This document shows positions 31,506 through 56,763 of a DNA stretch of 64,000 nucleotides, piece after piece (within the stretch, counting starts at the first letter, position 1; each line of letters starts with the position of its first letter). The DNA is from Pseudomonas urmiensis. Lineage in GTDB: Bacteria; Pseudomonadota; Gammaproteobacteria; Pseudomonadales; Pseudomonadaceae. The position numbers and the translations under genes are program-made. The notes beneath the pieces were generated by a model, which saw only the letters and a program-made list of their open reading frames with translations, ran no database searches and was not told the origin of the DNA. The stretch covers positions 4,965,001 to 5,029,000 of the forward strand of contig NZ_JABWRE020000001.1 of the NCBI RefSeq assembly GCF_014268815.2, in the 5' to 3' direction.

Positions 31506-31644
31506 ATAATATAGTTTGACACAGAGCCCCCGTAATTCGTGGCCTCCAGCGATACGACCTACCGTTTCGAACGAATTATAGTTCGACACAAGCAGATGGT
31601 TCGTCGAAAAAAGCATCCCGCTGCACATAATATAGTTTGACACA
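31506..31644. mobile_element. Left-end TnsB-type binding sites (three)
   Basis: ATAATATAGTTTGACACA occurs at 31,506-31,523 and again at 31,627-31,644; a variant, GAATTATAGTTCGACACA, lies at 31,573-31,590. They are in inverted orientation to the right-end sites and spaced 67 and 54 bp apart, as the left end of Tn7 has three spread sites. Confidence 0.8.
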
Positions 31645-33358: not shown

Positions 33359-35269
33359 CTACAGCAAGTGGGTAATAACCCACCCCTGCGCGGCCAACGC
33401 CGCTTTACACTCTTCTGAAACCCGTTCTGCGTTGACCGCCAGGCAAAGAAAGCTGGTAGGTCGTGACATTCCGACATACAGATTGCGGTACTGAGATAGC
33501 TGACTCTCAGGCGTTTTTTTGGCTCGAGTACCGATCCCTGCAATGATGGGCAGCGCGAGCTCCAGATCGAAACGACGACTTGGATAACCTAGAGACTCCA
33601 TGACGAGGGTTGCCAAGTGCGTTTCACCTTTCATCGAGGCGAGTGTCCCGATGTGAACGTTTAAGGTGCGACCATTTTTTTCGATTGAACAAATCGATCG
33701 GTGTAGCCCGTGAATAGCCATGGTCGCTGGCCGGTGAAAAACCGGAAGCTCGCTGAATATCTGCAGTGGCATATGATCTGGGAGCAACGAGCGCAGCTTT
33801 ACGTACAGTGCATTCACTATACGGACGCGCCTTTCTTCATCTGCTTCCGCCACGTTTGCCATGCATAAATCACGCATCAGCAACCGGAAAGCCGACACGT
33901 CCTTATCAGCATCACGCAGTTTGCGAATCAGCTGATGATCAGCTTTCAAGCCTTCGACAATCTGCGCTTTGGCGGCGCGCAGCACCAGAAATAGCGCTCT
34001 GCGGATCTCTTCAAATCGTGATGAACACGATGCATTTACGGCAGGTTTAGACCCACCGAGAAGCGCCCAAAATTGCACAAGCTTGAGCCCAGGTAATTGA
34101 TCGCCTGTGGAAGCAGGCCAGTAGTCCAGTAGGGTACGGCCTGCTATCTGTTTTGCGGCATCGCCCTGTTTGCGAGCGCAAAGAGCTTTGACTTTCCCAT
34201 TGGTCAGATCGGTATCGCTGAAGCGGTCTAGTACATGCTCTCCAAACGTCGAGATCACATCTTGTACACGTTCGGTGCTGTAGACGATCAACATGGAGGC
34301 GTGACGGTCTTCGCTCTCTCCAGTTACAGCGGTACCTGTCAGCTGTGTTCTGGACACGGACTGAGCGATATGAGGACCGAAGCGTTTGCTGGAGGAGATC
34401 GGCAGCGCGTCGCCTCGTGGGAACGTCAGGTTTTCCGCTCCCTCCGAACTACCTAGGATTCGCTGATTGATATCGCCGAAGCGCTGAATGATGACGGTGT
34501 CGTCGAACATCAACTGCAACAAACGCTCTTGCTCCCAGGACGTATCCTGCATTTCGTCGATAAAGACGACAGGGAACCTGCGGGATAGTTGGGCCCGAAC
34601 CTTGGGGAATTGAGTCATCAGGCACTCCGCGTACGCGAACATGTCCGCGTGCCGGAAAACCCCCTCGGCGGCGAGGGTTTGTTTGATACCGACAATTGCC
34701 GGATAGGTTTTCGCGCTTGGCTTGGGAAGCGAGCCAGATTCACTGGCTAGGTCCAGAGATGATCCTTTGTAGACCAGCCCCTCTAGCATGGGCGCGACAC
34801 CTGGATTCATCTCCATATAGCGCCGCAAGCTGTAATTGGCATGGGCTAAACCTAATGCTCGACGGGCAAAGATGTCGTTGTCGATCACATCGACGGTCAT
34901 CCCCTTACTTCGCAGGTACGGCAGAGCCAGAAACTGATTCACCATGGCGTGAATCGTCCCTATGAAGTGAGGATGCGTGAGTAGGCGACTCCCGTCATGG
35001 CTTGTACCTAACCGGCGCTGAATTTCATCACGGGCGACATTTGTATGACTGAGCACACAAACGCCTGCGCGGCTTGAGGTCCATCTGCGGCTCAGCATCA
35101 ACAGCTTCGCTGCGAGCACTGTGGTCTTACCACTACCTGGCGCGGCGTTGATGTCACGAGACTGGTTCTCCAGTAGCACGGTACGTCGCTCGTGATCATT
35201 GAAGTTCAAGTCGGGAGTCAGGTCGTTTAGAGCCTCAAGATCTGTAGCGTCGATCACTGGGACGGTCAT
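33359..35269 (-). CDS. UvrD-like helicase, GajB-like
   Basis: A 636-aa superfamily 1 helicase: Walker A NAAPGSGKTTVLA (41-53), motif II VFIDEMQDTSWEQ (235-247), motif III FGDINQRI, a motif V-like MKGETHLATLV and motif VI NLYVGMSRP near the C-terminus. Its start overlaps the OLD-family gene by ATGA. The OLD nuclease-UvrD helicase pair is the composition of the Gabija anti-phage system, in which GajB senses DNA ends or nucleotides and activates GajA. It is longer than the roughly 500 aa of the described GajB, with extra sequence in the middle. Confidence 0.85.
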   Translation of the reverse strand: MTVPVIDATDLEALNDLTPDLNFNDHERRTVLLENQSRDINAAPGSGKTTVLAAKLLMLSRRWTSSRAGVCVLSHTNVARDEIQRRLGTSHDGSRLLTHPHFIGTIHAMVNQFLALPYLRSKGMTVDVIDNDIFARRALGLAHANYSLRRYMEMNPGVAPMLEGLVYKGSSLDLASESGSLPKPSAKTYPAIVGIKQTLAAEGVFRHADMFAYAECLMTQFPKVRAQLSRRFPVVFIDEMQDTSWEQERLLQLMFDDTVIIQRFGDINQRILGSSEGAENLTFPRGDALPISSSKRFGPHIAQSVSRTQLTGTAVTGESEDRHASMLIVYSTERVQDVISTFGEHVLDRFSDTDLTNGKVKALCARKQGDAAKQIAGRTLLDYWPASTGDQLPGLKLVQFWALLGGSKPAVNASCSSRFEEIRRALFLVLRAAKAQIVEGLKADHQLIRKLRDADKDVSAFRLLMRDLCMANVAEADEERRVRIVNALYVKLRSLLPDHMPLQIFSELPVFHRPATMAIHGLHRSICSIEKNGRTLNVHIGTLASMKGETHLATLVMESLGYPSRRFDLELALPIIAGIGTRAKKTPESQLSQYRNLYVGMSRPTSFLCLAVNAERVSEECKAALAAQGWVITHLL

Positions 35270-37185
35270 GGCTCCGTCCTGCCAGTCAGATGACGCAGCG
35301 CCCGCTGTAGGTAAGGCGGCAGATTGTTGAACAACTCATCTCCTTTCCCATAATCGCCTGTTGAAATCAGGTGAGCAGCGTATTGGGCGGTGATGGCTTT
35401 TGATGCCTGCTTCTCTACGAGCGGTTGATAGATGAGGGATGCCAGCTCCACTTTCGAATGCCCGGCATTCGAGAGTTTTTCCCAGAACGCTGCTGACTCG
35501 ACAATGGCTTTCTTTTCATCTTCCTCCGTCAGCCGTTCACCCCTCGAATTTGCCTTCTTAGCCAAATGAATCGCGTCATGCATCAACCGGGCGCATCCGT
35601 AAAAGGCGAGATCGTATTCCAATGTCCATTTGTTGGAGACACAGACAATTGTGCTGCCGCCCTGGGCGCGGTCGATCTTTGTTTTGACCAACGCCTCGGC
35701 CTCCTCCGGCGTGTAGTCTTTTTCGAATCGTTTACTTTTCTTGGGAGCGGATACGTAAGTGGCCTCGTCAGGAACGATGTCACGATCCGTGATGCATGCG
35801 ACAGGGATGGGAATAGCCGAACCATCACTCGGCTGGAGGATTCGAGCGTAGTGATAAAGCCCAACCCCGCCGACGTTTACGCAAGAGATCCCGTGTTCGT
35901 TGAAAGAGTATCCTGCGGCCGCCGCCAAGGCGGGCAAAAGCAGCGTTTCTGCTGGCCCCTCTACGATCGCAACACCTCGAGCGAAGAACAGGTTCGCTTT
36001 GGTAGCATCGATAAAACGTCTCAAGAACTCGTAGTCGCTTTTCAGCAGCTTGGTCTTCCCGTGAGCCAAGCTGAACAGCTGAGCACGGTTCACCAAGGTA
36101 AGGCTCGCGATGTCCGCGCCCGCCGCTAGGGATGGGCTGTGGGTGGTCATCACGATCTGAACAGGCCGGCTATCTTGCTCAACTGCCTTGGAGGTGCGTT
36201 CCAGAAGCTGCTGAACGCGCTCCTGCAACTGCGGGTGGAGATGGGCCTCAGGCTCCTCGATCAACAGTAATCCGAGCTCTTCACCGTCACGCAGCAGAAC
36301 CAGTTCAGTTGCCATGAACAGAGCGTTGTTATAGCCGAGCCCGCGAATGCATCGCTCACCTGGATCGATGGTAGAGGATGGTAGCAGCGCCAACTCAAAA
36401 CGCTCCAGAATGGGCTGCAGGCCCAGCTCCGGAGCGATCTGGATACGTGAGGACAGCGCATCGCCAGCAAACGCAAACTTGTTCAGGTAGTTGTCATTGA
36501 CGTCGTCCTGAACATCCTTAATGACCTGATGCTCGCCCAGATGGTGCTGAGCAAACGCCATCAACCCTACCAAGTTACTGGGGACGGTAGCTGGAGCAGC
36601 TATGTCGAAGTCATTTTTCTCCTGTCCATCAATACGCTTATGAGCGCCCAGAATTTGCGATAAGCGAGACTGACGACCCGGGCGTAGCTCAGCTTCGGCA
36701 TCTCTCAGAGGTCGCAAGTAGGTGGCCCGGATGAGTTCACGAACCGCAGTGCCGATCTCAGGCCCGGTGCCATTCGGACCTGAGCAGGTGATTGCCTCGA
36801 CTCGCCCACGCTTGTTGGCCTTGGGCGGTATCCAACGCGCTTGCAGATAGACGACCAAGCTATGAGACCCGTCCGCTTCGTGGGTCATCCATTCGAGAAC
36901 GGAAGCCTCTTGCGCTGGGTCGAGGTCCACAAGGGTGGCCTCAATGAACAAAGAGCGGGCTCGGGTCTTACCCTTGATGTGAAAATCAGTTTCGAAGAGG
37001 CGGACGAACTCGTAGCTGGTTGTCCAGAGCACGTAGCGGATCGCGTCAACCACCGAAGTCTTGCCTGAATCGTTTTCCCCAACAAGGATGTTGAGGCCGG
37101 GGGCGAGCTCCCAATCAAGTGCTGGAGCCGCCGTACCATCGCCAAATGCCCTAAAATTCGACGCCCTGATCCGCTTCAAATGCAT
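35266..37185 (-). CDS. OLD-family ATPase-TOPRIM nuclease, GajA-like
   Basis: A 639-aa OLD-family protein. The ABC-type ATPase has Walker A ILVGENDSGKTSVVDA (33-48), Walker B LLLIEEPEAHLHPQ (306-319) and the switch histidine in MTTHSPSLAAG. The TOPRIM domain follows with VAIVEGPAETLL (Glu408) and CITDRDIVPD (Asp466, Asp468), the metal-binding set of class 2 OLD nucleases. ATG 37185 has GGAG eight bases upstream. With the overlapping helicase gene it matches Gabija: DNA nicking by a GajA tetramer controlled by nucleotide levels. Some Tn and prophage OLD genes work alone or with other partners. Confidence 0.88.
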   Translation of the reverse strand: MHLKRIRASNFRAFGDGTAAPALDWELAPGLNILVGENDSGKTSVVDAIRYVLWTTSYEFVRLFETDFHIKGKTRARSLFIEATLVDLDPAQEASVLEWMTHEADGSHSLVVYLQARWIPPKANKRGRVEAITCSGPNGTGPEIGTAVRELIRATYLRPLRDAEAELRPGRQSRLSQILGAHKRIDGQEKNDFDIAAPATVPSNLVGLMAFAQHHLGEHQVIKDVQDDVNDNYLNKFAFAGDALSSRIQIAPELGLQPILERFELALLPSSTIDPGERCIRGLGYNNALFMATELVLLRDGEELGLLLIEEPEAHLHPQLQERVQQLLERTSKAVEQDSRPVQIVMTTHSPSLAAGADIASLTLVNRAQLFSLAHGKTKLLKSDYEFLRRFIDATKANLFFARGVAIVEGPAETLLLPALAAAAGYSFNEHGISCVNVGGVGLYHYARILQPSDGSAIPIPVACITDRDIVPDEATYVSAPKKSKRFEKDYTPEEAEALVKTKIDRAQGGSTIVCVSNKWTLEYDLAFYGCARLMHDAIHLAKKANSRGERLTEEDEKKAIVESAAFWEKLSNAGHSKVELASLIYQPLVEKQASKAITAQYAAHLISTGDYGKGDELFNNLPPYLQRALRHLTGRTEP

Positions 37186-37350: not shown

Positions 37351-37374
37351 AAAACCGCCTGGACGGGCGGTTTT
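37351..37374 (-). terminator. Terminator of the hydrolase/AAA operon
   Basis: AAAACCGCC and GGCGGTTTT pair around a 6-nt loop. On the minus strand the stem runs into eight T residues, just 31 bp past the stop of the AAA-TPR gene, so that operon ends before the Gabija-like genes start. Confidence 0.9.
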
Positions 37375-37404: not shown

Positions 37405-39951
37405 CTAGCTACGCCCAATCAGCGTGCACAACCCCGAACGCAAATCACCTTCTACATTCTTGAACTTTGATACTATCGGGTCTGCGTCCTTATACTTAAC
37501 GACAACCTTGTCGTTTCGCTTGAAATTCTTAAGTTGGACGCTCTTTATGCTTCGCAAGTGATCATTAGCCCCATTCAGGAAGGGCGCCAACGCTTCAAAA
37601 GCTTTACCTTTCATCTCAAGCTTTTCAGAAACAGATATTATCTTGGATGCAAACAGCGAGGAATCCTCAACATTTTTTACGTCCAAGGCGCATTGCATTT
37701 GCAGATAAAGGAAGAGCATTCCCCACTCTGGCCATTTTTCACTTGCCGTATCTTCGAATCTTCTCCACAACTCAAAACACTCAGCCAACTCGGACCGTTT
37801 ACTGCTGAATCGACCAACCATGAAGTTAGCAGCAACGATAGCATCTTGCTCACCAAGCAAGTCTGGCGGGCAATGCGCATTAAGAGTACGAAGGAATTTC
37901 ATCCCCCAAGAACCTGCAGACACATTTGACTGAGAGTTAGCCAAATGTCTATAAAGGCGGATTCGCTCAAACTCCGGAACATCGCTTGTCAAATAAGTGC
38001 TTTCAGCACGCAAAAGCAACACAGCTCCAGGGGAATTATCCTCCGTTTCCACTGCTTCTGCGAGATCAATCAGTATGGAAACAATGCTAGATGTAGGTTG
38101 GTAATACTTATCCTTAATGACTCGAACGAAACTATCGAACTGATCATCAGCGTATGTGGCCAGCCCGACCACCGCCAAACTTAAAACCAACTTAGTTAAG
38201 CCAAGTGGCGACTGAGCATCAGATATAAGCTTTAGCCTATTATCAGTTACAAGCTCAACAAACTCAGCCAGCAAGCTCTTTTTCTCATTCGCTTCATCGG
38301 AGCGCTTCAAACCTTCAACAAGTAAGAATGGCATAAACTCTAGCGGAGCTACAGACCTCGCCCTCTCCAGCGCTGCCGTTGAAAGATCTTTATTACCGTA
38401 CAAGCTATATATCAGGGATGCATTAGCAAGCGCTGTGGTCAACAAATACTTCTGATCTGGCTCGTTAATCGACTGAATTTGTTCAATTAAATCTTCACTC
38501 AAAGAGATCGCTGCAGATCTGTATTCCTGCACCTTCATCCTTGCATACGCAACTTGAAGATTAAGCTTGGCGCTTACTACGAGAGCTCTATCCGGACCAA
38601 CCAATGCAGTCTGAAGCTTATTCAGCGCTGACTGATAATTTTTCAGCGCTAGATAAGCGCCTCCAGCTTGCAAACTACAGAGCTGTCGAATTCTTTCATC
38701 TACCGTTTCAGCTTCAATAAGCTCATACTGGTCAATCGCATCATTAAAATCGCCACTATAGAACAGCGAGCTTGCATAATCAATACGCTTTGACTCAACC
38801 AATTCCTCAACATCTGCAGCAAAAACTTCAGCAAAGTATTTTTTTGCTTTAACGTAATCTTTGGCAGAAAATGCCTCGCTTGCGATAGTGAGTGCTGACG
38901 GCTCTGAGTCTTCAAGCTGTTTTATCCAGCGCTCTGAAAGTGCCCCATCAATTACTCGATTCTTTATTACAATGCCAAGTGCTCTATCTGATTTTGCAAT
39001 GCCAGCTAAATATAGTTTACCTTTAACGCGGTCATCAGCAAAGTTGCCACGATCATATCGTATCGACATGATAGCATTACGTATGCTCGCGTCGCCCTCC
39101 ACCAATGCCCTGATATGATCAACAGGGGCTCGGTCATGCTCCTGATAATAGAGCCGATCTACAATCTCATCAACCAGCAAAGGAGTTGCGTCTTTTCCTG
39201 CAGCAATCTCCAGCTCAACCTCAGAGCATATATCCCACGAAATTCTAGGGTTGCCGTCCGTCCACCAATAGATTCGATCGGAAACAGATGAGCCAACTTT
39301 AAGCTTGGCACGGCTAACAAATTCATCAAACTCTGAGCGAGTAAAATCCTCTAGATAGATCTTCTCACCTATATTAAATGGCGAAATATTCTTATCTTTA
39401 ATCAAGTCGCCTGGCTCAGCGACGCCTGACAAAACGTAGGTTAAATTATTATATATTTCATGATTCCCTCGAGAGAAATACATGCTCCTAACTTGTGCCA
39501 AAATCGAATCAGAGTATGTGCAGCCTATTAGTGAGTCAATCTCATCCAGAATAATAACAATCTTTTTGTTAGCGGACTTGAGCAACAACCGCAAATGCCT
39601 ATCGTATTCTACACTGTCCTCCAGCTCATCCCCTCGCCTTTGGCCATCTATGACTTTAGCGGCAGATTCAAATAACTCAGGACTCATCTCCAGTATAGTG
39701 TCTATTATATTCCTGAAAAACTTTCTTGCGGTCTCAAACCTATTTGATAAATCGAAATAGACCACCAAATCCATGGAGCGGTTTCGCTTCATATTTAAAA
39801 GCAGGTTTGTCTTACCCATCTGACGGGACACCAGAATGTAACCGGGGCGTCCCATCTCATCGATCACAGTTTTAAGCTGGCGATCTGCTGATCGTTCAAC
39901 ATATAGATGTGCCGGAATAATGGTAGCAGGCGCAAGGACTCGAGCAGTCAT
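37405..39951 (-). CDS. AAA-like ATPase with TPR-type helical repeats
   Basis: An 848-aa protein. The N-terminal P-loop NTPase has Walker A LVSRQMGKTNLLLN (40-53) and Walker B IVIILDEIDSLIG (131-143), the pattern of the AAA_35-type ATPases of STAND-like sensors. A winged-helix-like region (about 200-330) and a long C-terminal array of helical repeats follow (AKKYFAEVFAADVEEL; ALKNYQSALNKLQTALVG; SIYSLYGNKDLSTAAL), typical TPR-like sensing surfaces. It overlaps the upstream hydrolase-NTPase gene by four bases. The coding is AT-rich and distinct from the host. No nuclease or membrane effector is visible in it, so its partner probably carries the effector. Confidence 0.82.
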   Translation of the reverse strand: MTARVLAPATIIPAHLYVERSADRQLKTVIDEMGRPGYILVSRQMGKTNLLLNMKRNRSMDLVVYFDLSNRFETARKFFRNIIDTILEMSPELFESAAKVIDGQRRGDELEDSVEYDRHLRLLLKSANKKIVIILDEIDSLIGCTYSDSILAQVRSMYFSRGNHEIYNNLTYVLSGVAEPGDLIKDKNISPFNIGEKIYLEDFTRSEFDEFVSRAKLKVGSSVSDRIYWWTDGNPRISWDICSEVELEIAAGKDATPLLVDEIVDRLYYQEHDRAPVDHIRALVEGDASIRNAIMSIRYDRGNFADDRVKGKLYLAGIAKSDRALGIVIKNRVIDGALSERWIKQLEDSEPSALTIASEAFSAKDYVKAKKYFAEVFAADVEELVESKRIDYASSLFYSGDFNDAIDQYELIEAETVDERIRQLCSLQAGGAYLALKNYQSALNKLQTALVGPDRALVVSAKLNLQVAYARMKVQEYRSAAISLSEDLIEQIQSINEPDQKYLLTTALANASLIYSLYGNKDLSTAALERARSVAPLEFMPFLLVEGLKRSDEANEKKSLLAEFVELVTDNRLKLISDAQSPLGLTKLVLSLAVVGLATYADDQFDSFVRVIKDKYYQPTSSIVSILIDLAEAVETEDNSPGAVLLLRAESTYLTSDVPEFERIRLYRHLANSQSNVSAGSWGMKFLRTLNAHCPPDLLGEQDAIVAANFMVGRFSSKRSELAECFELWRRFEDTASEKWPEWGMLFLYLQMQCALDVKNVEDSSLFASKIISVSEKLEMKGKAFEALAPFLNGANDHLRSIKSVQLKNFKRNDKVVVKYKDADPIVSKFKNVEGDLRSGLCTLIGRS

Positions 39952-41483
39952 GTTACAACATCTCTCTTAACGTTTCCCAACAGCTCCCGCAAAGGCGCAG
40001 AACCACCGATTTCGTTTCGCGTACTCCTAAAAAGCATTTTTACAAATCGTGGTGAACCGTTACAACTTGATACAATAAGACCTACGTCCTCTGGACTAAA
40101 ACCAGTACTTAGATTGGTATTTATCATTGATATCAGCGTGGTTATGTCAGTATCTCTCCAAGCGCCAAACCCAATAAATTGTATTTTTTCATACAGCTTA
40201 GCAGTGCACTCTTTCAAATCTTTCGTAGGATCTTTAATAGACGAGAAAAGCCATATCACACGACAATTGTCATGAATGCTTTCACATTCCAAAGTCATTC
40301 TATAACAATAATCGATGAACTTATTATACTCTGCACCGCTAGCAAGTGGTATTTCTTCGACTAGTAATGCTAACGCTTGATTATTTGCAAGGCTGGCAAT
40401 AGCTTTTTTGAACGCTTTCACCAGATCACTATCTGTAAGACCTCTCGGCAGCACTTTATCTACACCTGCACTCTCGTTTAGAGCGTTACAGATTTCGCGC
40501 ATAAGATCTGCCGCCGTCACATCACGAAAGCTATCTAATATTAGGTGATGGAACTTCCATTTTTCTTTAGTAATCAACCGCTTCAGCGCAGCCGTTTTTC
40601 CGACACCTGGTGGCCCACTCAGCCAAATATTAGAGGCGTTTGCTGCAGCAGCAATTACCTGATCCTCAGCGCGCGGCACATAGAATTTTTCCACTCTTGT
40701 ACTATAAGCATCAAATAATATATCTGAAGCGCTAAAGTTATTCGGATTGAACCCAGACAGACTAGAATCGGGAGTCCACTGCGAGATGAAGTCCCGCAGG
40801 ATTTTAAACCTCAAATCCTCGGCATTATCGGGCTTTGTTATATTTATATGCCCATACTCTATCAGCGTATCAGTCGTTTGATCTCCAACATAGGGTGACG
40901 AACTTTCCCGCGAAACAACAGAATCACTACCGGCAATAACACTGCGGACCTTTATCGAGGAGGCGACATCTAAAGCAACCCACTCACCATTCATCGAGGT
41001 CAGCAAGTCTGCTTTAACTGAAAGCTGTTTAAGGTGAGGGTGTCGCCACGAAAATCTCGACGCAAGATTTGCCAACCCGGCACCTGCTAATGGAGAGGCG
41101 TACAACAACAAGCCCGTAACATAGTGGTCTCTTTTGAATTTCATAGACTCTAGTATGTAGTGCCTGGCGATTACACCGCCCAAACTATGAGCCACTATGA
41201 GGATATTTTTGCCTTTATGCTTGGATGCAATAAACGTCTTCAGGCCTTCGGAAATCTCTTGAATGCTTGACATTTTTTTGCCAAACGGCCCACGCCATAG
41301 CTGAGTTGGATACTGATAACAATCATAACCAATATGGTCCAAATCGCGATACCCTATGAGTACCTTCAGCATTTGGTCCCAAGTTCCACTTGAGCCAGAC
41401 AACCCATGGATAAAGATAATTACATCGTTCCCTCTGGTACTCCGAGTGGTTTGCAATTCAGTTTTCCTTGCCAATTGCGACAT
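39948..41483 (-). CDS. Alpha/beta-hydrolase fused to a P-loop NTPase
   Basis: A 511-aa fusion. Residues about 20-230 form a SERAC1/PGAP1-like lipase-type hydrolase: oxyanion region IIFIHGLSGSSGTW (22-35), nucleophile elbow IVAHSLGGVIARHY (Ser100), a downstream Asp (GSDSVV) and the histidine of EYGHINITKPDN (His212). From about 255 an NTPase domain follows with Walker A WLSGPPGVGKTAAL (287-300) and Walker B LALLVEEIPLA (371-381). The complete Ser-His set suggests an active esterase or phospholipase gated by the NTPase. Its stop overlaps the start of the AAA-TPR gene. AT-rich composition points to transfer. Possible two-gene abortive infection system. Confidence 0.82.
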   Translation of the reverse strand: MSQLARKTELQTTRSTRGNDVIIFIHGLSGSSGTWDQMLKVLIGYRDLDHIGYDCYQYPTQLWRGPFGKKMSSIQEISEGLKTFIASKHKGKNILIVAHSLGGVIARHYILESMKFKRDHYVTGLLLYASPLAGAGLANLASRFSWRHPHLKQLSVKADLLTSMNGEWVALDVASSIKVRSVIAGSDSVVSRESSSPYVGDQTTDTLIEYGHINITKPDNAEDLRFKILRDFISQWTPDSSLSGFNPNNFSASDILFDAYSTRVEKFYVPRAEDQVIAAAANASNIWLSGPPGVGKTAALKRLITKEKWKFHHLILDSFRDVTAADLMREICNALNESAGVDKVLPRGLTDSDLVKAFKKAIASLANNQALALLVEEIPLASGAEYNKFIDYCYRMTLECESIHDNCRVIWLFSSIKDPTKDLKECTAKLYEKIQFIGFGAWRDTDITTLISMINTNLSTGFSPEDVGLIVSSCNGSPRFVKMLFRSTRNEIGGSAPLRELLGNVKRDVVT

Positions 41484-45080: not shown

Positions 45081-45505
45081 GTCTTGAATCCATCAAAATT
45101 CTGGTTGATGAGCTCTCGACTCTCCACGTAACCCATGGCGTTCAGCCAAGTGAGCTCATCGACAATCTTTTCGAGGAAGACTACGTCGAGTCCTCGGCCC
45201 GGAAAACCTCTCAGGGCCTGGTGTTCGAGCTGACCTTCCAAGAGGCAGATGATGACGGATCGTCGAGCAAGATCACCATGCGCTACACCTACGACCTCAG
45301 CCGTCATCTGGTGCTTGTGGAGCAGAAGGTCGCTGCCAAGCGCTTCGCCATTCAGTGGGATCGCACCCGCGCCGTTCAAGAACGGTTGGCCAAACTTGAA
45401 GCGCTGCTCTCTAACCGGCTGCCACAGGAGAGCGTCGCCGCGATCCTATCGACCATGCCGCAAGACTACCTTGCAATCGCTCCTCGCCTGCAGTTGGTAG
45501 CCTAA
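45077..45505 (+). CDS. Small partner protein of the helicase, unknown
   Basis: A 142-aa soluble protein whose ATG overlaps the helicase stop (ATGA), so the two are translated together. It begins with a helical segment (SIKILVDELSTLHV), has a strand-rich centre (GLVFELTFQEADDDGSSSK, TMRYTYDLSRHLVLVEQK) and ends in helices. No known motif. The strict coupling suggests a complex with the helicase. Confidence 0.75.
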   Translation: MSLESIKILVDELSTLHVTHGVQPSELIDNLFEEDYVESSARKTSQGLVFELTFQEADDDGSSSKITMRYTYDLSRHLVLVEQKVAAKRFAIQWDRTRAVQERLAKLEALLSNRLPQESVAAILSTMPQDYLAIAPRLQLVA

Positions 45506-45535
45506 CCCTCGCCTTCTCCTCACTGCGGCTGATCA

Positions 45536-45937
45536 TCAAGCAGAGATGATTTCGCCGCAGTGAATCTGCTCAATACGCCGATACGTCTCGTACAGAGAGA
45601 TCAGGTCTCCTTGGGCCATAATCTCCAGAGGCGTGCGCCCCTCAAAGAATGGATTGGCATTCTTGAACAGTGGAAAGCCCTTTACATTATCCTGATTGCT
45701 GAATGCAGCTCTCAAGAATCCGTGGATACCTATCACCAGGCCAATCCGCTGCTGCTGATCCAAATCCAGTCTTTGCCCACATTCCTGACCCCGCGCAACG
45801 CGGCGATAGGTCGATTGAGAGATCCGTAGGATGCTGCAAGCCTGCGCCGGTGTTGCTCGCCAGGCATTGATGATTCGAAGCGCGACCTTCAAGCCGACCG
45901 AACACTGCTCACCGCTGAGGCGCTGCCTGTTGATCAT
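45536..45937 (-). CDS. MbcA/ParS/Xre antitoxin-like protein, no RES toxin beside it
   Basis: A 133-aa protein with an N-terminal helix-turn-helix (ACSILRISQSTYRRVARG) and the C-terminal toxin-binding signature NPFFEGRTPLEIMAQGDLIS of the Xre/MbcA/ParS family. Such proteins normally pair with RES-domain NAD-degrading toxins, but no RES gene adjoins. ATG 45937 has AGGAG upstream. It lies 84 bp downstream of the second TniQ gene on the same strand and converges on the helicase pair. It may be a regulator of the element rather than an antitoxin. Confidence 0.82.
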   Translation of the reverse strand: MINRQRLSGEQCSVGLKVALRIINAWRATPAQACSILRISQSTYRRVARGQECGQRLDLDQQQRIGLVIGIHGFLRAAFSNQDNVKGFPLFKNANPFFEGRTPLEIMAQGDLISLYETYRRIEQIHCGEIISA

Positions 45938-50353: not shown

Positions 50354-52024
50354 TCAAACTCCAGGCCTGATGCACGCGGTGCGGTACAAGGCTGATCGCG
50401 TTACGTTTCGCTGTTCATGCAACAACTTCGCTTCAGCCCACAACAGGCGTCGAGTGCGAAACTGCTCGGCAGATTCGCAGACCTGATTCAGTTCTCTCCT
50501 GCAAAGAGGGAGCTTAGGTAGTTGTTTCTCGAAACGCGCCAAGACGTGCAGCTCTCTCCCAATTCTCGTACGCGAAATACGGATAGGTTTTCCGGACTCG
50601 GCACGCAGCCGCTGTGCACAGCACCTGATCTCCTCGGCAAGCTGAACGTCAAGAGCCGCAAACATGCCTGCGCTACCAGGTCGGCTTGTATAACGATTAC
50701 CGTATTCCGCGATCCAGCTTGACACCCACATTCGGTCACATCGATACAACCAGGGATAATCCCGGCATTGGTGAGCTTGCAAGCCCCCATACTCATTCTC
50801 GAATGATTCGCGTCGCCGCCGGCGCTCCCTCACAAATCTCGCTTCTTTCCATTCGCTCGGACCTCGGTTTACGGCGCGGATGGTCCGGTAAACCTGGGTC
50901 TGGGATACACCTAGCATACCGGCGATCTGCGCCGCGTCCTCCCCAGTAAGTGCCAGTTTCCAAATCGCAGCTGCTAAGCCTTTTAACCCATCAGTAACAG
51001 GCTCTCTTGCCACTGTTCGTGAGGTCCGGGTTCCAAGGTGAGATGGTCCCTCACGTTCAGGCCCCGCCGGTTTGTCGACGCAAGGTATACAAGCCAAGTC
51101 GACCCTCAAAGCGCTTGCCAGAACGAGGTACTTGAGTGGATGGTGCGTACCTCTGGGCATTCGAAGCAACTTCGTCACCCAAGTCGCAGGTAACCCTGAT
51201 GGGGCTTTGCGAAGAACCGAGTACTCCCAGTCGGCTGGAAGAAACTTAAAAAGGCTGGCCATGTGTGAAGCCAGAAGTCGTAGATCCAACCTGTGTGCAG
51301 CTCCAGATGTCAGACCTAAATCTATAGCGGCCTGCAGTAGAAATGCGCGTACCGCTGTTGCTGGAAGAGGGCCGCGCTCCAGGCCGAGCAACTGTAATGA
51401 ACCGCATGCGATCTGATGTAGCCTGGGAAGGGTATGTACACCAGCGTTGAGCTGAATCGCATGAGCCTGTACACCGTCATCGCCAGGCAGACAAAGCTGT
51501 TGTGAGTTGCGACTGTACCAACTGGGGTCCACTACTTTGAGTAACTGGCTGTGCTGGGGACATACCAGGACACCGGGTAGCTGATGAACGCGGTGCCAGT
51601 ACGCCGCCCCGAATCTAATAATGTCATCAGTTAGGCATGAGGGGCAAAATCGAACTCTTGCAGCACCTTCGATCCGGCTGGCATTTACGCCCAGCTTCAG
51701 CATCAATCCTCTGCCATCACCAGCCATTGAGGAATGGGCATACTGAAGTTGGTCATTGGTGAGAAAGGGGGCGTAGTAAGGCAAGACGCTATGACGCTTG
51801 ATTATTTGGGCCACTGAGAGATCCGTGCCGGGAGGAAGCGCCCCGACCAAATCCCCTAAACGACTAGGAAACGCTACATTCTGCGTGAAAGAGGCTGCGG
51901 CTCTCTCGCCAGCGAACGCTGCTCGGCGGCTACTTCCACCACAAAGCTGGGCATAACGAGAGAGGACACTGTGAAGTGTCTCGTCGGGAAAAGCCGCCGG
52001 GAAGAAATGGAATTTCAGCTCCAT
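50354..52024 (-). CDS. tnsD: First TniQ/TnsD-family target selector
   Basis: A 556-aa TniQ-family protein directly behind tnsC, the place of TnsD in Tn7, which binds the end of glmS and recruits TnsC. It has the N-terminal FPDETLHSVLSRYAQLCG, zinc ligands in RFCPSCLTDD (Cys127, Cys130) and LPGVLVCPQHSQLL (Cys155, His158), and a helix-turn-helix-like GMLGVSQTQVYRTIRAV in the C-terminal half. Start ATG 52024 has AAGGTGG upstream and is 15 bp past the tnsC stop. Its role at glmS is inferred from position and insertion site. Confidence 0.87.
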   Translation of the reverse strand: MELKFHFFPAAFPDETLHSVLSRYAQLCGGSSRRAAFAGERAAASFTQNVAFPSRLGDLVGALPPGTDLSVAQIIKRHSVLPYYAPFLTNDQLQYAHSSMAGDGRGLMLKLGVNASRIEGAARVRFCPSCLTDDIIRFGAAYWHRVHQLPGVLVCPQHSQLLKVVDPSWYSRNSQQLCLPGDDGVQAHAIQLNAGVHTLPRLHQIACGSLQLLGLERGPLPATAVRAFLLQAAIDLGLTSGAAHRLDLRLLASHMASLFKFLPADWEYSVLRKAPSGLPATWVTKLLRMPRGTHHPLKYLVLASALRVDLACIPCVDKPAGPEREGPSHLGTRTSRTVAREPVTDGLKGLAAAIWKLALTGEDAAQIAGMLGVSQTQVYRTIRAVNRGPSEWKEARFVRERRRRRESFENEYGGLQAHQCRDYPWLYRCDRMWVSSWIAEYGNRYTSRPGSAGMFAALDVQLAEEIRCCAQRLRAESGKPIRISRTRIGRELHVLARFEKQLPKLPLCRRELNQVCESAEQFRTRRLLWAEAKLLHEQRNVTRSALYRTACIRPGV

Positions 52025-52039
52025 TTCGCCACCTTCGAA

Positions 52040-53503
52040 TCAAGATTTGTGGTAGACCGGTGAAAACTCAAAGAGATCCGTGGTAATCCAACCCGCGGAC
52101 TTGAGCGCTGCTATGGTGTCAGGCTGATCACTGAGTGCCTTCGCTTGCGATTCCTCTACTGCAACAGCAGCAAGTGCAGCGTGAGCTGCGGGGTTGCTCG
52201 GAACTGCTGCTGAAGGTGTAGCTGCAGGCTTCGTATGCGTCTTCACAACACGGAGCAATGCAAGCCGGTCTGCTCGTGGAAGCCCATCAAACGACATCAT
52301 GTCGATCAACTGCTCCTCGATGGGAAGAAGGTCATCGAACTGTCGCATACGAGCAGGGTCTCGACTGCGCAGAGCTGAAAGAGCTGGCTTGAGGATTTGC
52401 ATCTTGGCATTGCTCACCTTGGCGATCGCCTCGGCAGTCAGGCATTCGGAGCCGCTTTGAATGGCATAGCGCTGGCACAGAACGAGTAGCTTCACCAGGA
52501 AGTCTGTTACGCCTTGGGTGTACTCGTACAACGCATCGAAGATCTCGGGGGTCAGTTCAGCAGTCTGCTTGCACCACTGATAACTCCAGAGGTTCTCAAC
52601 CAGGAACTGCCACTCCTCATCATCCTTCTCGAACCGCTTGAACTCGATAGTACTGCCGCTGCGACGGGCAACACGCATGACATCCGAGAACAAGCTGATC
52701 ATTGAATTCGTGCCTATGAACACGACAGGGATGCCAATGTTGTTCACCAAGTGTAAGAAGAAGTTCAGCATGCTTTCCTTGCCACCCGTTTTCGCCAAGT
52801 GGAGGTTTTGCAGCTCATCAATCAGCAAGGCGCCAATGAAGAACGTACTGGCTACCTGGTACATCTGCTGCAGCGCATCGTTGATGTTCCGGTGCCGATG
52901 ACGCTTGTGATAATCCTGGTCGCCGAGTGCTTGACCGACGGCGTGGAAAAACTGCTGGCAGAATCCAGCCAGCGACCCATCGCGCGGGCAGTCTAATTTG
53001 AGCCAGGTGATCTGGGTGTGGACAAATTGGTTCCCATCATAGCGCTCATGCCGAATCGTTTGGGGGTAGAGGCTCAGAATGGCGTGGAGCGCAGTCGACT
53101 TCCCAATACCACTCAGGCCTACAACGGTGAAGGAGTCAGCCGTCGATTTGAAAGACTCATGATAGCGCTGGGCCCCCGATAAGGAATGCAGGTGCCTGAC
53201 CGTGTCAGGTGAGGTTGGATTGCGTCCAACGTAACCGCGGCGGACCAACAGGGAAAACATAGACTCCAGTTCCAAATGCAGCAGGAACGGCTGCACGACT
53301 GTCTTCAGTCGCTCAATACAGTGAATCCGTGTCGCTCCGTCGAGTTCAAGCTCCTCAGGTGTTACTGGCTGGGGGAAGTTCGATATCAACTCGATGGCCG
53401 CTGCTTCCGGAAGGATCGGCGGCAAAGCCTCAATCAACGGGTTTCCTGCATATTCAGAGATGGCCTGCTTGGTATAACTCGCGAAAATTCGTGCGCCTTT
53501 CAT
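52040..53503 (-). CDS. tnsC: Transposition AAA+ regulator TnsC
   Basis: A 487-aa AAA+ ATPase: Walker A VVGLSGIGKSTALHAI (127-142) and Walker B ALLIDELQNLHLAKTG (225-240), then a sensor region (PVVFIGTNSMISLF). TnsC links the target selector to the TnsAB transposase. It overlaps tnsB by ATGA. The long C-terminal tail (Ala/Pro-rich from about 430) fits the region that contacts TnsAB in Tn7. Confidence 0.92.
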   Translation of the reverse strand: MKGARIFASYTKQAISEYAGNPLIEALPPILPEAAAIELISNFPQPVTPEELELDGATRIHCIERLKTVVQPFLLHLELESMFSLLVRRGYVGRNPTSPDTVRHLHSLSGAQRYHESFKSTADSFTVVGLSGIGKSTALHAILSLYPQTIRHERYDGNQFVHTQITWLKLDCPRDGSLAGFCQQFFHAVGQALGDQDYHKRHRHRNINDALQQMYQVASTFFIGALLIDELQNLHLAKTGGKESMLNFFLHLVNNIGIPVVFIGTNSMISLFSDVMRVARRSGSTIEFKRFEKDDEEWQFLVENLWSYQWCKQTAELTPEIFDALYEYTQGVTDFLVKLLVLCQRYAIQSGSECLTAEAIAKVSNAKMQILKPALSALRSRDPARMRQFDDLLPIEEQLIDMMSFDGLPRADRLALLRVVKTHTKPAATPSAAVPSNPAAHAALAAVAVEESQAKALSDQPDTIAALKSAGWITTDLFEFSPVYHKS

Positions 53504-55668
53504 TTACTCTGTCCTGGACGAAGTCTTCTGAGCAGATCGATGACCTGCGCGCTGCGAGGGCCCGCATACGAGTCGCGTGCAATGGAGGTCGCTTCCGCTA
53601 CGGGTTGTTCGGGCTCTGCTCGCACACCCTCTGGGACTGTGGCGTTTTTACGCTCCCGCTTGCGCTCTTCAGAACGATTTTCGCGGATGTTGGCCACCGC
53701 TTCAGATTTAGTACTCGCAGGAGGCTCAAGCTTTTGCTCGGCCGTAGCGACGCTGATGATTTGCTCCACGGTGTCGACCAAGCTCACGCGGCTCTCCAAC
53801 TCTGCCCGTTTGTGAGCGGGTGGTGTTTGCCGATACGCTTCCAGCAGATCGTAGATCTCGTCCGAGCGATAACCGGCGTACTTTGCATCCGAGCGTCGAA
53901 GGTCGCAGCGCAGAAACTGCTTGTTTTCACCCTGGATCCAGATATGAGCGGCAGAGTTCGGATCGAACCGGCAATCGATCGACCACACTCCATTGCGGCG
54001 AGCTTTGGCAAACCAGTTTTCTTGGATCGCAAACTCACACACATAGTGCATGCCGCGGAAAATCACGCCGCCCTTCTGCACCGTGGCTCGCTCACGAGGC
54101 AACAGGTGGAGATAGATTAAATCGTCAGGCCGGTTGTTGGCCTGGATCAGATCATTCTCCGAAGCCCAGGACCATATGCCCGTGGGAGTAGGCTCAACGC
54201 CATCGAGCATCATCGATTGAGTGAGGCGTTCTGGCTGTCGATGATAACGGTTGTAGTGCAAGACGCACTCAATGACGATCTGCGTGAACTCCTTCAGGTT
54301 GAGAGTGGCGTCGAGCCGATAATCGCGCTCGCCTCGCTCTTTCTCCCGCGCGGCCACACCGCCCGGAAGCCACCTGATACCGGTTAAATCATTGAGGATC
54401 CCGAACCTGCTTTCGACCATGGGCTTCCAATCTGGACGGTAAGGAGGTGCCGTGCCCATCTCGATGCCCAAACCAGTTGCCAATCCTTCCGCAGCCAAAG
54501 ACAACATCTCGCCTCGGTCGGCGTAGATTTGCTGAGGTAGGTGGTGGCAGTCCCAGTCCTCGGAATTGATAACGACGCCGTTCTGCGCGCAGAAATCCAC
54601 CTTGGAGGTGAATGCATTGAACAATGCCTGCCGCGCACCATTCCAGCTGGGCCCCTCCAGACCAACATACAGGCCAACAATCATCCCCGAGAAGCTGTCC
54701 ACCACGATGTAGACCACAGGCCTTCCAATCACCATCCGCCGGGAATAACTGTTGACCAAGTAGATATCTGCAATCGTCGCGTCAATCTCGAATTGGTGAC
54801 AAGGCCCCCGAAGCCAATCGCGGACGGTACCGGACAGCGGACGGCAGTCTTTGAGCCACTTCGTCAACCCCTTACGCCCACGATCAGTTGCTATCTCGTC
54901 AAAAAATATTTTGCCCCAATAAACGAACTGATTGTAATTAGGTATCTCGGCATCTGGAAGTAAGCGAATTCGATTTTCTGCGTTCTTCGAATAATCTTTT
55001 ACAGAATAGAATTTCTTAAGCATCTTGTCATAAGCAATGCGGATTGAGGGCGCTTTATCGTTGACATAAAGTGAGTAACCTACCCGAATACACCGCTTAT
55101 CAACAACACTGAGCAGCTTGGAAGGCGTAGTCAGAACTCCCTGAAACTTAGGCTTAGGACCGGGCCGTTTATCTTGGGTGTAGTTCCTGCTGGCAACACC
55201 CACCGCTGAATAATTTTTGAGAAGCGCATTTCTTACCTGACCATAGAACCAATATCTATACAAAAGACGATAAATAGTCTTTCGATGCATGCCCAGTTCA
55301 GCGGCGCGGTTTCCCACAAGGCGCCCCATCTCGCCACGAACGAAGATCTGTCCGGGGTAGGCCGGATCCAGAAGCGGCGCAATCACTGCCCATTTTTCAT
55401 CCCTATCGCGCTTAGTGCTTTCATCGAGATCACCTTCCAAGACCAGCAGGAATTCGGGTACTCCCGTGACGACGGATTTGGTGTCGCCAGACTCCAGCGA
55501 GAGCCTGAGTTCTTCAAGCCCCAACGGGTAGGGCTTTCTCGGCGGCTCGACGAGGTCTATCACGATCATTGCGTCGTCCTTCTCATCCAGATAAAGGACT
55601 CTGGCTAAGGTTGTGAGTACCGAGAGTTCTGTGACGGGCTCGAATACGTCATTAATTGAAATATTCAT
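53500..55668 (-). CDS. tnsB: DDE transposase TnsB
   Basis: A 722-aa integrase-fold transposase that binds the end sites and joins 3' ends to the target. The DDE triad is visible: HQFEIDATIADIY (Asp296), QIYADRGEM (Asp384) and DWKPMVESRFG (Glu419). An N-terminal winged-helix part (LGMHRKTIYRLLYRYW) and a Mu-B-type C-terminal barrel surround the core. It overlaps tnsA and tnsC by four bases each. The tail (ERKRERKNATVP, then a disordered end) is the probable TnsC contact. Confidence 0.94.
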   Translation of the reverse strand: MNISINDVFEPVTELSVLTTLARVLYLDEKDDAMIVIDLVEPPRKPYPLGLEELRLSLESGDTKSVVTGVPEFLLVLEGDLDESTKRDRDEKWAVIAPLLDPAYPGQIFVRGEMGRLVGNRAAELGMHRKTIYRLLYRYWFYGQVRNALLKNYSAVGVASRNYTQDKRPGPKPKFQGVLTTPSKLLSVVDKRCIRVGYSLYVNDKAPSIRIAYDKMLKKFYSVKDYSKNAENRIRLLPDAEIPNYNQFVYWGKIFFDEIATDRGRKGLTKWLKDCRPLSGTVRDWLRGPCHQFEIDATIADIYLVNSYSRRMVIGRPVVYIVVDSFSGMIVGLYVGLEGPSWNGARQALFNAFTSKVDFCAQNGVVINSEDWDCHHLPQQIYADRGEMLSLAAEGLATGLGIEMGTAPPYRPDWKPMVESRFGILNDLTGIRWLPGGVAAREKERGERDYRLDATLNLKEFTQIVIECVLHYNRYHRQPERLTQSMMLDGVEPTPTGIWSWASENDLIQANNRPDDLIYLHLLPRERATVQKGGVIFRGMHYVCEFAIQENWFAKARRNGVWSIDCRFDPNSAAHIWIQGENKQFLRCDLRRSDAKYAGYRSDEIYDLLEAYRQTPPAHKRAELESRVSLVDTVEQIISVATAEQKLEPPASTKSEAVANIRENRSEERKRERKNATVPEGVRAEPEQPVAEATSIARDSYAGPRSAQVIDLLRRLRPGQSK

Positions 55669-56516
55669 AACGATCTCTCACTCAATGCGCCCAGGTCAGA
55701 AGAGTAAATAATCTTGAAATCAGGTAGTGGCGATTTCAGGTGCAACGGAGCGCTACTCAAATCAATCTGAATTACTTTTCGCCAGATCAGATGGTAGAAA
55801 ATATCTCTAGCATCGCCGTACGCTATTCCCAATCGTGCAGCAATTCTTCTAAGACATTCAGACGTGGCCCAAGGGTAAGCTTTGCTTGATTCTAAAAGTT
55901 CAAGGAATTCAGAGTGAAGTGACGAAGTCATAAGCGCACAGGGTAGTTGAGAATACCGCCTAAGGAGCCCGAGATTCTTTATAAGGTCTGGCGTAAACAT
56001 TTCCTCAGTAACAATGGCCCAGTCCACTCCCAGGCTCATCCAGAAGCGCCTCTCGACTTCTAACTTTTCCAAAGTCCGAAGAGAACCCTGTTTGAGGTCT
56101 TGCTGATACTTAATTGTCCTAGCTACCGACTTAAAATCTCCGTTTGGCTGCCTAACAGTCAAGAGAAAGTCTGTCGTCATTACCAGCGGCAGGGCAGTAG
56201 ATTTGTATCTGGGGTAACGGACGCCAATAGCCTTTGCGATTGCTAGAGTGCTTTCCACAGGCAGCAACGGGTATTGCTCGCGGATGTCGACTACGTCCTC
56301 AGAAAACTCGCAGACCAGGAGATAGGCACGTTCGAGATCGGACAAAAGATGATGTATGCGCTCGACTTTAACGCCTGGGATTTTGTGGGAGCGCCCCATC
56401 GAAGGGACATCCTGCACACGTAACCAAGGCACGTAACCGACTCCGGCGCCGGATCCAAATCCGTTGGCGATGTGCCGTTCAATATCCTGCTTTGAAGCAA
56501 ACCTACGACCGCGCAA
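55665..56516 (-). CDS. tnsA: TnsA endonuclease
   Basis: A 283-aa restriction-endonuclease-fold protein that cuts the 5' ends, giving cut-and-paste movement. The catalytic set is visible as DIREQYPL (Glu80), TTDFLLTV (Asp116) and RTIKYQQD (Lys136). A C-terminal winged-helix part contacts TnsB. The start is a TTG at 56516 directly behind GAGGAGGTAGGAG, an unusually strong ribosome site. First gene of tnsABC-tnsD, nearest to the right end. Confidence 0.92.
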   Translation of the reverse strand: MRGRRFASKQDIERHIANGFGSGAGVGYVPWLRVQDVPSMGRSHKIPGVKVERIHHLLSDLERAYLLVCEFSEDVVDIREQYPLLPVESTLAIAKAIGVRYPRYKSTALPLVMTTDFLLTVRQPNGDFKSVARTIKYQQDLKQGSLRTLEKLEVERRFWMSLGVDWAIVTEEMFTPDLIKNLGLLRRYSQLPCALMTSSLHSEFLELLESSKAYPWATSECLRRIAARLGIAYGDARDIFYHLIWRKVIQIDLSSAPLHLKSPLPDFKIIYSSDLGALSERSL

Positions 56517-56707: not shown

Positions 56708-56763
56708 TGTGTCAAACTTTAATAGTGTGTGTCAGACTTTAACCTTCTGTGTCAATCTTTAAT
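56708..56763. mobile_element. Right-end TnsB-type binding sites (three)
   Basis: TGTGTCAAACTTTAAT (56,708), TGTGTCAGACTTTAAC (56,728) and TGTGTCAATCTTTAAT (56,748) repeat at exactly 20-bp spacing; the terminus TGT (complement of ACA, 56,768-56,770) is seven bases further out. Close-packed right-end sites and spread left-end sites are the Tn7 pattern. Confidence 0.88.

What the first reader, a model, noticed from the sequence alone, without database searches (positions are those of the whole stretch)
39948..41483. Hydrolase-NTPase fusion coupled to an AAA-TPR ATPase: candidate undescribed two-gene defence system
Seen: a SERAC1/PGAP1-like hydrolase with intact Ser100 and His212 is fused to a P-loop NTPase, and its stop overlaps (ATGA) the start of an 848-aa ATPase with a TPR-like tail (37,405-39,951). 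A terminator closes the operon. Known: STAND-type NTPases with repeat sensors and lipase or nuclease effectors act in abortive infection. Inference: the TPR protein senses a phage cue and the hydrolase attacks membranes or another ester. I know of no named system with this exact pair.
Basis: partly seen in the sequence, partly recalled or inferred. Interest (0 to 1): 0.75.

Follow-up and report, generated by a model that had tools for sequence, protein, structure and literature searches.

The report
Paired-ATPase defence with swappable effectors
Two neighbouring bacterial genes form a conserved pair of related ATPases, one with a protein-binding sensor tail and the other with a killing enzyme that differs from species to species, which looks like an undescribed anti-virus system built from exchangeable parts.

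Summary
In detail: an alpha/beta-hydrolase-NTPase gene (39948-41483) overlaps by ATGA an AAA_35-TPR ATPase gene (37405-39951), closed by a terminator-like hairpin. In 57 of 58 assessable loci (59 named-genome hits), a gene with the same NTPase domain sits directly upstream of the AAA_35-TPR gene. The hydrolase is only one of several effectors in that slot: PNP-type nucleosidase 27, alpha/beta hydrolase 13, Mrr-like nuclease 8, trypsin 7, one amyloid-like relay, one unassigned. Sister loci L046/L047 share 62% and 59% identity in the two ATPases but carry unrelated effectors, so the effector is swapped at the domain junction. All 7 trypsin loci have an adjacent metallo-beta-lactamase gene, the cassette shown to be antiviral in Avs and Hachiman (PMC12799240). 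The two ATPases look distantly paralogous. The window's pair rides a Tn7-like element at glmS, beside Gabija. No named system matched it as a whole (PADLOC 2023, NCBIfam 2026, ten paper searches). Best reading: a modular, split STAND/NLR-like abortive-infection system, sensor ATPase plus effector ATPase. Defence activity, phage cue and membrane damage are inferred; structure predictions were submitted but never returned.

The parts
39948..41483 (-). Gene 1: effector-NTPase fusion, 511 aa (alpha/beta hydrolase + STAND/Cdc6-like P-loop NTPase)
40764..41429 (-). alpha/beta hydrolase effector domain, about aa 19-240; Ser100 codon 41184-41186, Asp187 40923-40925, His212 40848-40850
   Evidence: Ser and His invariant in 71 of 71 rows
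39999..40718 (-). NTPase domain shared by all effector classes, about aa 256-495: YVxRxxD, Walker A GPPGVGKT, Glu376-377, GSPRFVK
   Evidence: Walker A Gly/Lys kept in 55-56 of 56 sequences, Glu377 in 56 of 56
37405..39951 (-). Gene 2: AAA_35 ATPase + TPR array + conserved C-terminal tail, 848 aa
38917..39936 (-). AAA_35 STAND-like ATPase domain, about aa 6-345 (RQMGKT, LDEID, GNPR)
   Evidence: mean column entropy 0.45-1.72 bits
37582..38898 (-). TPR superhelix, about aa 352-790, fast-evolving; proposed sensor
   Evidence: (entropy 2.56-3.01)
37408..37527 (-). conserved C-terminal tail, aa 809-848 (KVVVKY....KFKNVEGDLRSGLC)
   Evidence: (entropy 1.98)
39948..39951 (-). ATGA stop/start overlap coupling gene 1 to gene 2
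37351..37374 (-). intrinsic-terminator-like hairpin with T run after gene 2
   Evidence: read from the sequence; not listed by the scanner
35266..37185 (-). GajA of a Gabija system next to the pair (cargo neighbour, not part of the pair)
   Evidence: PADLOC GajA 1e-218
33359..35269 (-). GajB of the same Gabija system (cargo neighbour)
   Evidence: PADLOC GajB 8.4e-222
50354..56516 (-). TnsA-TnsB-TnsC-TniQ/TnsD transposition genes of the Tn7-like element carrying the pair
31510..31644 (-). three TnsB-site-like repeats at one end of the element
   Evidence: 6 sites in all, 0 of 100 shuffles as many; the pattern was read off these repeats
56708..56761 (+). three TnsB-site-like repeats at the other end, next to glmS

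Best explanation
The pair is one version of a modular two-gene immune system made of two distantly related STAND-type ATPases. Gene 2 (AAA_35-TPR) is the sensor: its fast-evolving TPR superhelix binds a cue of infection and releases its ATPase domain. Gene 1 (effector-NTPase) is the executor: its NTPase co-assembles with, or on, the activated sensor ATPase and so clusters the fused effector, which switches on. In this copy the effector is a lipase-like serine hydrolase that most probably cuts a lipid or other ester of the host, stopping growth before phages are released. Elsewhere the same chassis carries a PNP nucleosidase, an Mrr-like nuclease, a trypsin that would cut a pro-nuclease encoded next door, or an amyloid-like relay to a separate small protein. 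Shown here: the gene pair, its conservation, effector exchange, intact ATPase motifs and conserved catalytic-site residues, likely distant paralogy of the two ATPases, mobile and defence context. Inferred: phage cue, ATP-dependent assembly, effector activation, abortive outcome, hydrolase substrate.
For: Fixed order: NTPase gene directly upstream of AAA_35-TPR in 57 of 58 assessable loci, overlapping or within 10 bases in 56 of these 57. The effector varies: PNP 27, hydrolase 13, Mrr 8, trypsin 7, amyloid-type 1, unassigned 1. L046 and L047: gene 2 proteins 62% identical, partner NTPases 58.8%, effectors without similarity; sisters at full support in both trees, and each tree needs 7 effector changes where 4 is the minimum. 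Conserved catalytic-site residues in each class. All 7 trypsin loci have an adjacent metallo-beta-lactamase gene: 6 by Pfam directly upstream on the same strand, L047 by motif on the opposite strand; the cassette is shown antiviral in Avs and Hachiman. NTPase and AAA_35 align by profile from YVxRxxD to GxPR, E 4.4e-05. Correlated divergence, r 0.85 over 55 loci, 0 of 1000 permutations as high. The TPR region evolves faster than the AAA domain. Context: Tn7-like element with Gabija; flanking restriction and Septu genes (control).
Against: No experiment and no structure model. hhalign probability for the paralogy is only 69%, although the E-value is low. Correlated divergence could partly reflect shared ancestry of the carriers. 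The NTPase scores nSTAND6 and nSTAND3 below the Pfam cut-off, so the STAND label is by motif and architecture. The acid of the hydrolase triad is kept in at least 90% of A3 but did not reach the 92% threshold among the 13 more diverse hydrolase loci. One effector-NTPase (L011) has a weak LmuB match, 19.9 bits. Flanking enrichment is modest: families, not genes, were counted, and the Avs1a match among the flanks may be L047's own cassette. Nothing shows which phage or cue is sensed.
Confidence: 0.68

Rival explanations
1. Guard or toxin-antitoxin logic: the AAA_35-TPR protein holds the effector-NTPase inactive, and loss or phage inhibition of gene 2 frees the effector.
For: Tight coupling and fixed order. 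The effector is encoded first, as in some toxin-first pairs (recalled).
Against: An inhibitor need not have an intact ATPase, a long TPR array, or a partner NTPase domain conserved independently of the effector. The effector domain changes while the ATPase pair stays, so inhibition would have to act through the NTPase.
Confidence: 0.17
2. A conserved conflict or stress module not aimed at phages (plasmid exclusion, transposon competition, or response to DNA damage or envelope stress).
For: No phage trigger is known. The pair rides a transposon in this window and occurs on 2 contigs classed as viral.
Against: The trypsin versions carry the nuclease-protease cassette of proven antiphage systems, and restriction and Septu families occur among the flanking genes. 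Patchy: 4 of 298 genomes of the genus, own included.
Confidence: 0.12
3. Accessory part of the Tn7-like element: the ATPases help transposition, like TnsC (also AAA_22) and TniQ.
For: AAA_22 similarity is shared with TnsC; location inside the element.
Against: The pair is found in several phyla with enzyme domains typical of defence effectors. The element has TnsA, TnsB, TnsC and TniQ/TnsD proteins of its own. GC of the pair is 43.8% against 51.9% for the element. Whether tns genes lie near the other loci was not checked.
Confidence: 0.03

Closest known systems
Avs / AVAST (types 1 and 2), antiviral STAND ATPases
   Same: STAND-type ATPase with swappable N-terminal effectors, including trypsin with a metallo-beta-lactamase partner, and Mrr-like nuclease
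   Different: Avs is one long STAND protein (the PADLOC Avs1b and Avs2 models span 1498-1924 positions); here effector-NTPase and repeat-bearing ATPase are two separate, likely paralogous proteins. The Avs matches above 1e-10 cover the trypsin part of L047 and L051; a weak one (0.021) covers the Mrr part of L030
Lamassu (LmuA effector + LmuB SMC-like ATPase)
   Same: Effector gene beside an ATPase gene, overlapping effector pool
   Different: No LmuB match for the window's gene 2 or the six other gene 2 proteins scanned; LmuA matches vanish when the effector domain is removed. Against this: a weak LmuB match, 19.9 bits, in the NTPase half of L011's gene 1
nSTAND2 two-gene operon (Kaur et al. 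2021, PMC8195603, section 15)
   Same: Two adjacent genes each encoding a STAND ATPase, one fused to variable effectors; closest conceptual precedent found
   Different: There the effector-bearing STAND is described as inactive and fused mostly to GT4 or HEPN; here Walker A is intact in the effector NTPase, the partner is AAA_35-TPR, and effectors are PNP, hydrolase, Mrr, trypsin
Bacterial and fungal NLRs with amyloid signalling motifs (BASS/BELL, PMC7889193)
   Same: L037 has matched amyloid-like motifs at the C-end of a small upstream protein and the N-end of the NTPase; hydrolase and PNP effectors recur in fungal NLRs (recalled)
   Different: Sensor repeats are on a second protein; no BASS model was run, and the small protein has no Pfam match
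Nuclease-protease cassettes of Hachiman, Avs, Lamassu, DRT (Tuck et al. 2025, PMC12799240)
   Same: Metallo-beta-lactamase gene next to a trypsin fused to the N-end of a defence enzyme
   Different: The AAA_35-TPR chassis is not among the four systems named in the passages seen; its supplement was not seen. In L047 the nuclease-like gene is on the opposite strand

Membership tests
STAND/NLR-like signalling ATPase | P-loop ATPase with intact Walker A and acidic Walker B | tested here: met
STAND/NLR-like signalling ATPase | effector domain + NTPase + C-terminal repeats in one polypeptide | tested here: not met
   repeats lie on the second protein
STAND/NLR-like signalling ATPase | above curated cut-off for a STAND Pfam family | tested here: not met
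   nSTAND6 17.4 bits against 27.7, nSTAND3 14.5 against 27.2
STAND/NLR-like signalling ATPase | signal-induced oligomerisation | not testable with these tools
   needs biochemistry or cryo-EM
Lamassu | SMC-like LmuB gene as the partner | tested here: not met
   no LmuB match for seven gene 2 proteins scanned: window, L003, L030, L014, L049, L057, L058
Lamassu | LmuA outside its effector domain | tested here: not met
   C-terminal NTPase pieces of 6 members give no LmuA match at E 1
AVAST type 1 | metallo-beta-lactamase + trypsin cassette | tested here: met
   only in the trypsin class, 7 of 7 genome loci: 6 by Pfam, L047 by motif and divergent; not in the window
AVAST type 1 | long single-chain Avs ATPase | tested here: not met
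   intact fused partners are 437-581 aa; gene 2 proteins match no Avs model
nSTAND2 two-gene operon | effector-bearing STAND with eroded nucleotide-binding motifs, GT4 or HEPN effectors | tested here: not met
   Walker A Gly/Lys kept in 55-56 of 56; effectors differ; description read
nSTAND2 two-gene operon | nSTAND2 profile match | not tested
   no nSTAND2 model was identified in the libraries used
BASS amyloid signalling | matched motif in adjacent genes, N-end of the NTPase and C-end of the effector | tested here: inconclusive
   L037 only; 10 of 20 positions identical, 3 of 2000 shuffles as good
alpha/beta hydrolase (PGAP1/DUF676-like) | nucleophile, acid and histidine of the triad | tested here: met
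   Ser100, Asp187, His212 in the window; Ser and His in 71 of 71, Asp in at least 90%. In the 13 hydrolase loci Ser and His are 13 of 13, the acid is below the 92% threshold
alpha/beta hydrolase (PGAP1/DUF676-like) | predicted or solved fold | tested here: inconclusive

The most novel reading that the evidence does not exclude
A bacterial counterpart of the plant sensor/helper NLR pair: two ancient paralogous STAND ATPases in one operon, one holding the sensor repeats and the other holding an exchangeable executor, which co-assemble into a mixed ring. Because the executor is joined to the helper ATPase at a clean junction, evolution plugs in lipases, nucleosidases, nucleases, protease-nuclease cassettes or amyloid relays without touching the sensor.
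Probability: 0.42. Interest if true: 0.87.

Novelty: new variant of a known kind. Interest (0 to 1): 0.74.

Why it matters
It would add a chassis, found in several phyla, to the immune systems known to borrow the same small pool of effectors, and it separates sensing from killing onto two linked ATPases. That makes questions about NLR-like immunity directly testable in bacteria: how a sensor ATPase hands activation to a helper ATPase, and whether effectors can be swapped at the junction without loss of sensing. Natural sister pairs such as L046/L047 are ready-made swap experiments.

Tried and rejected
Lamassu was considered because LmuA models matched; set aside because the matches came only from the effector domain and the gene 2 proteins scanned match no LmuB. 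A search of the trypsin-type LmuA model in 17 genomes behind loci and in 296 Bacteroidota genomes did not show what that model was built from. Phage records hold no relative of gene 2 at E 1e-10; E. coli genomes were searched only for near-identical DNA, no match. Of 39 plasmid records with a match, one is a good relative (Sphingobium, 41% over 69%) and 38 match over 14-44% of the protein. Loci from the genome search mostly re-find loci: six of the eight have identical scores, one is the window itself, only L110 looks new, so they were not added to the counts. The Mycoplasmataceae MAG locus L010 nests with a Bacteroidales locus, so it may be a binning error; it was kept in the counts.

L058 was dropped from the trees: its AAA_35 gene is remote (105.8 bits) and its neighbour is a different STAND-like protein. 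L020 could not be assessed (the contig starts inside the gene). L024's upstream gene is cut short and was left unassigned and out of the trees. L025's PNP-NTPase gene is split; its two pieces were read apart, and L025 is in the gene 2 tree but not in the NTPase tree. A comparison of contig lengths between the two protein lists gave 21 of 34, but on a hand-picked part of the list; it is not used as evidence.

The flanking-gene test used the nearest ORF of at least 150 aa on each side, 100 ORFs from 55 loci, against 100 ORFs drawn at random from 186 in 20 stretches of 14 of the same genomes. At least two of the 100 case ORFs (L002, L029) are probably tail pieces of gene 2 itself, and the one Avs1a match may be L047's cassette gene.

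Two structure jobs were polled until and did not finish; no fold comparison was possible. Paper searches on the Pfam name (225 papers, 20 listed, none relevant), its accession (none) and the product name (1, a cyanobacterial genome) gave nothing. Two papers wanted were not held.
Full report
What is there. The window's gene 1 (39948-41483, - strand, 511 aa) is an alpha/beta hydrolase fused to a P-loop NTPase, and gene 2 (37405-39951, - strand, 848 aa) is an AAA_35 ATPase with a TPR array. They overlap by ATGA, and a hairpin with a T run follows gene 2 at 37351-37374, read from the sequence; the consensus scanner did not list it. The hydrolase triad is Ser100, Asp187, His212; Ser and His are invariant in all 71 aligned homologues, Asp in at least 90%. 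By sequence profile the hydrolase is nearest to solved lipases and phospholipases (7x2p 1.9e-11, 6zth 2.5e-09), and the NTPase to Cdc6 (1.4e-04).

Where it sits. The pair lies between Gabija (GajA 35266-37185, GajB 33359-35269) and a helicase gene, inside a Tn7-like element. TnsA, TnsB, TnsC and a TniQ/TnsD protein lie at 50354-56516, and a glmS-like gene at 56801-58636 (SIS and glutamine amidotransferase domains). Six TnsB-site-like repeats stand in opposite orientation at 31510-31644 and 56708-56761; none of 100 shuffles gave as many, though the pattern was read off the repeats themselves. The pair has 43.8% GC against 51.9% for the element and about 60% for the host, so it is probably a recent import. 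Relatives of gene 2 are rare: 4 of 398 genomes of the phylum and 4 of 298 of the genus (own genome counted in both), and 2 of 395 Bacteroidota (the known centre genome counted).

The pair is conserved. A scan of named genomes with the gene 2 alignment gave 59 loci. Of these, 58 have an open reading frame upstream, L020 starting inside gene 2. In 57 of the 58 that frame carries the same NTPase domain by an iterated profile built on the same set; the exception, L058, is remote. The distance is between -77 and +32 bases (earliest possible starts), and in 56 of the 57 the genes overlap or lie within 10 bases.

The effector is exchanged. Only the NTPase half is constant. The N-terminal half falls into clusters: PNP-type nucleosidase in 26 loci plus the split gene of L025, alpha/beta hydrolase in 13, Mrr-like nuclease in 8, trypsin in 7 (L047 clusters apart from the other six). 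L037 has no fused enzyme but an amyloid-like motif, and L024 is cut short. Not every member was scanned with Pfam: classes rest on clustering plus scans of representatives. L046 (Mrr) gave no Mrr match of its own, and L014 (trypsin) no trypsin match in Pfam but a full-length match to the trypsin-type LmuA model (6.6e-44). Residues recalled as catalytic are conserved: the PNP GEMEG and Asp motifs in 26 of 26, hydrolase Ser and His in 13 of 13, Mrr GDGGID and QCK in 8 of 8, trypsin His, Asp, Ser in 7 of 7. The hydrolase acid did not reach the 92% threshold in the 13 loci.

Proof of exchange. Trees of gene 2 (57 rows, quick method) and of the NTPase domain (56 rows, careful method) each need 7 changes of effector where 4 is the minimum. 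L046 and L047, both Hymenobacter, are sisters with full support in both. Their gene 2 proteins are 62% identical and their NTPases 58.8%, but one carries an Mrr-like nuclease and the other a trypsin with no similarity between them, and homology begins just before the NTPase. L030 (Mrr) and L037 (amyloid-type) are sisters in the gene 2 tree; in the NTPase tree L037 stands beside the Mrr group instead.

Links to proven defence. Six of the 7 trypsin loci (L014, L049-L053) have a metallo-beta-lactamase gene directly upstream by Pfam. In L047 the neighbouring gene on the opposite strand also reads as a metallo-beta-lactamase by motif (THIDADH, LSHHGS; motifs recalled). Viral contig L112 has the same upstream gene; its trypsin-like N-end is read by eye, since Pfam found only the NTPase there. 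Abstract and passages of Tuck et al. 2025 (PMC12799240) describe the arrangement in Avs, Lamassu, Hachiman and DRT, and show in Hachiman and Avs that the protease activates the pro-nuclease against phage. In L037 a 137-aa upstream protein ends with a motif that recurs at the start of the NTPase, 10 of 20 positions identical, 3 of 2000 shuffles as good. This resembles the BASS arrangement of bacterial NLRs described in PMC7889193 (passages), though no BASS model was run.

Flanking genes. The nearest ORFs of at least 150 aa on each side (100 ORFs, 55 loci) match 59 PADLOC families at E 1e-30; the 25 shown include type I, II and IV restriction, Septu PtuA, Avs1a and LmuA. One hundred control ORFs, drawn from 186 in 14 of the same genomes, match 16 families: DpdF, RtcR types, PsyrT, DEDDh, C3a193 and two candidate (PDC) models. 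The tool counts families, not genes, so the enrichment is qualitative. The Avs1a match may be L047's own cassette gene, and at least two case ORFs are probably pieces of gene 2.

How it probably works. The two ATPase domains align by profile across 204 columns, from the shared YVxRxxD motif to GxPR (E 4.4e-05, probability 69%), so they look paralogous. Their divergences are correlated (r 0.85 with the AAA domain, 0.80 with the TPR part, 55 loci). In gene 2 the ATPase is strongly conserved, the TPR region is not, and the last 40 residues are again more conserved. I read this as a sensor ATPase whose TPR tail follows a changing cue, and an effector ATPase that assembles with it and clusters the fused enzyme. 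In the window copy that enzyme is a lipase-like serine hydrolase, so host lipids or another ester are the likely target. These steps are inferred; no structure model was obtained (jobs, last polled).

Comparison with the known. PADLOC gives no match for the window's gene 2 at E 0.1, and for gene 1 an LmuA match over the hydrolase (8e-09) and a marginal MkoA match over the P-loop (0.047). In the relatives the strong matches are to effector domains; LmuA matches vanish when the NTPase is scanned alone. Against this, L011's NTPase half has a weak LmuB match (19.9 bits), and weak matches to candidate models (PDC-S01, S27, S59) occur. No NCBIfam model passes its cut-off for the window pair. The nearest idea in print that I found is the nSTAND2 two-gene operon (PMC8195603, passages and section 15), where the effector-bearing partner is inactive and carries mostly GT4 or HEPN; PMC7159879 (passages and section 33) describes other two-gene systems. 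Novelty is limited to these libraries and to the paper searches, all confined to openly licensed PMC papers; supplements were not readable and DefenseFinder was not available.

Noticed in passing
window 31510-56761: Tn7-like element downstream of a glmS-like gene with TnsABC, two TniQ/TnsD proteins (46022-47719, 50354-52024), Gabija, the pair and a helicase; ends marked by three TnsB-site-like repeats each.
   Followed up: partly
window 43083-45937: ResIII/RadD-like helicase (665 aa), a small overlapping ORF (142 aa) and, on the other strand, an Xre-like HTH protein; possibly a further uncharacterised defence cargo.
   Followed up: no
window 31986-32912: 308-aa ORF with no Pfam match inside the element, next to Gabija.
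   Followed up: no
L037 8680-10001: Three-gene version: a small 137-aa protein and the NTPase share an amyloid-like motif, suggesting an effector recruited in trans.
   Followed up: partly
L047 7066-8286: Divergent gene beside the trypsin version reads as a metallo-beta-lactamase by motif, so the nuclease-protease cassette can be split between strands.
   Followed up: partly
L058 7938-13847: Anaerolineales locus with a remote AAA_35 gene directly after a 686-aa nSTAND1-like protein (below cut-off): perhaps another kind of paired STAND system.
   Followed up: no
L034 12794-14557: A second, weaker AAA_35-TPR-like gene (52 bits) on the opposite strand right after the pair.
   Followed up: no
L113 5713-7167 and L111 4436-8550: The hydrolase version of the pair lies on a 48-kb contig classed as viral (IMG/VR), so it may also travel on phages or prophages.
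   Followed up: partly
plasmids: Many cyanobacterial plasmids carry remote AAA_35-like proteins, some under features annotated as WD-repeat, kinase or CHASE2; the AAA_35 family looks like an under-studied STAND clade.
   Followed up: no
L025 8354-9993: PNP-NTPase gene split into two ORFs ahead of an intact gene 2 (Fibrisoma limi); decay or assembly error.
   Followed up: no
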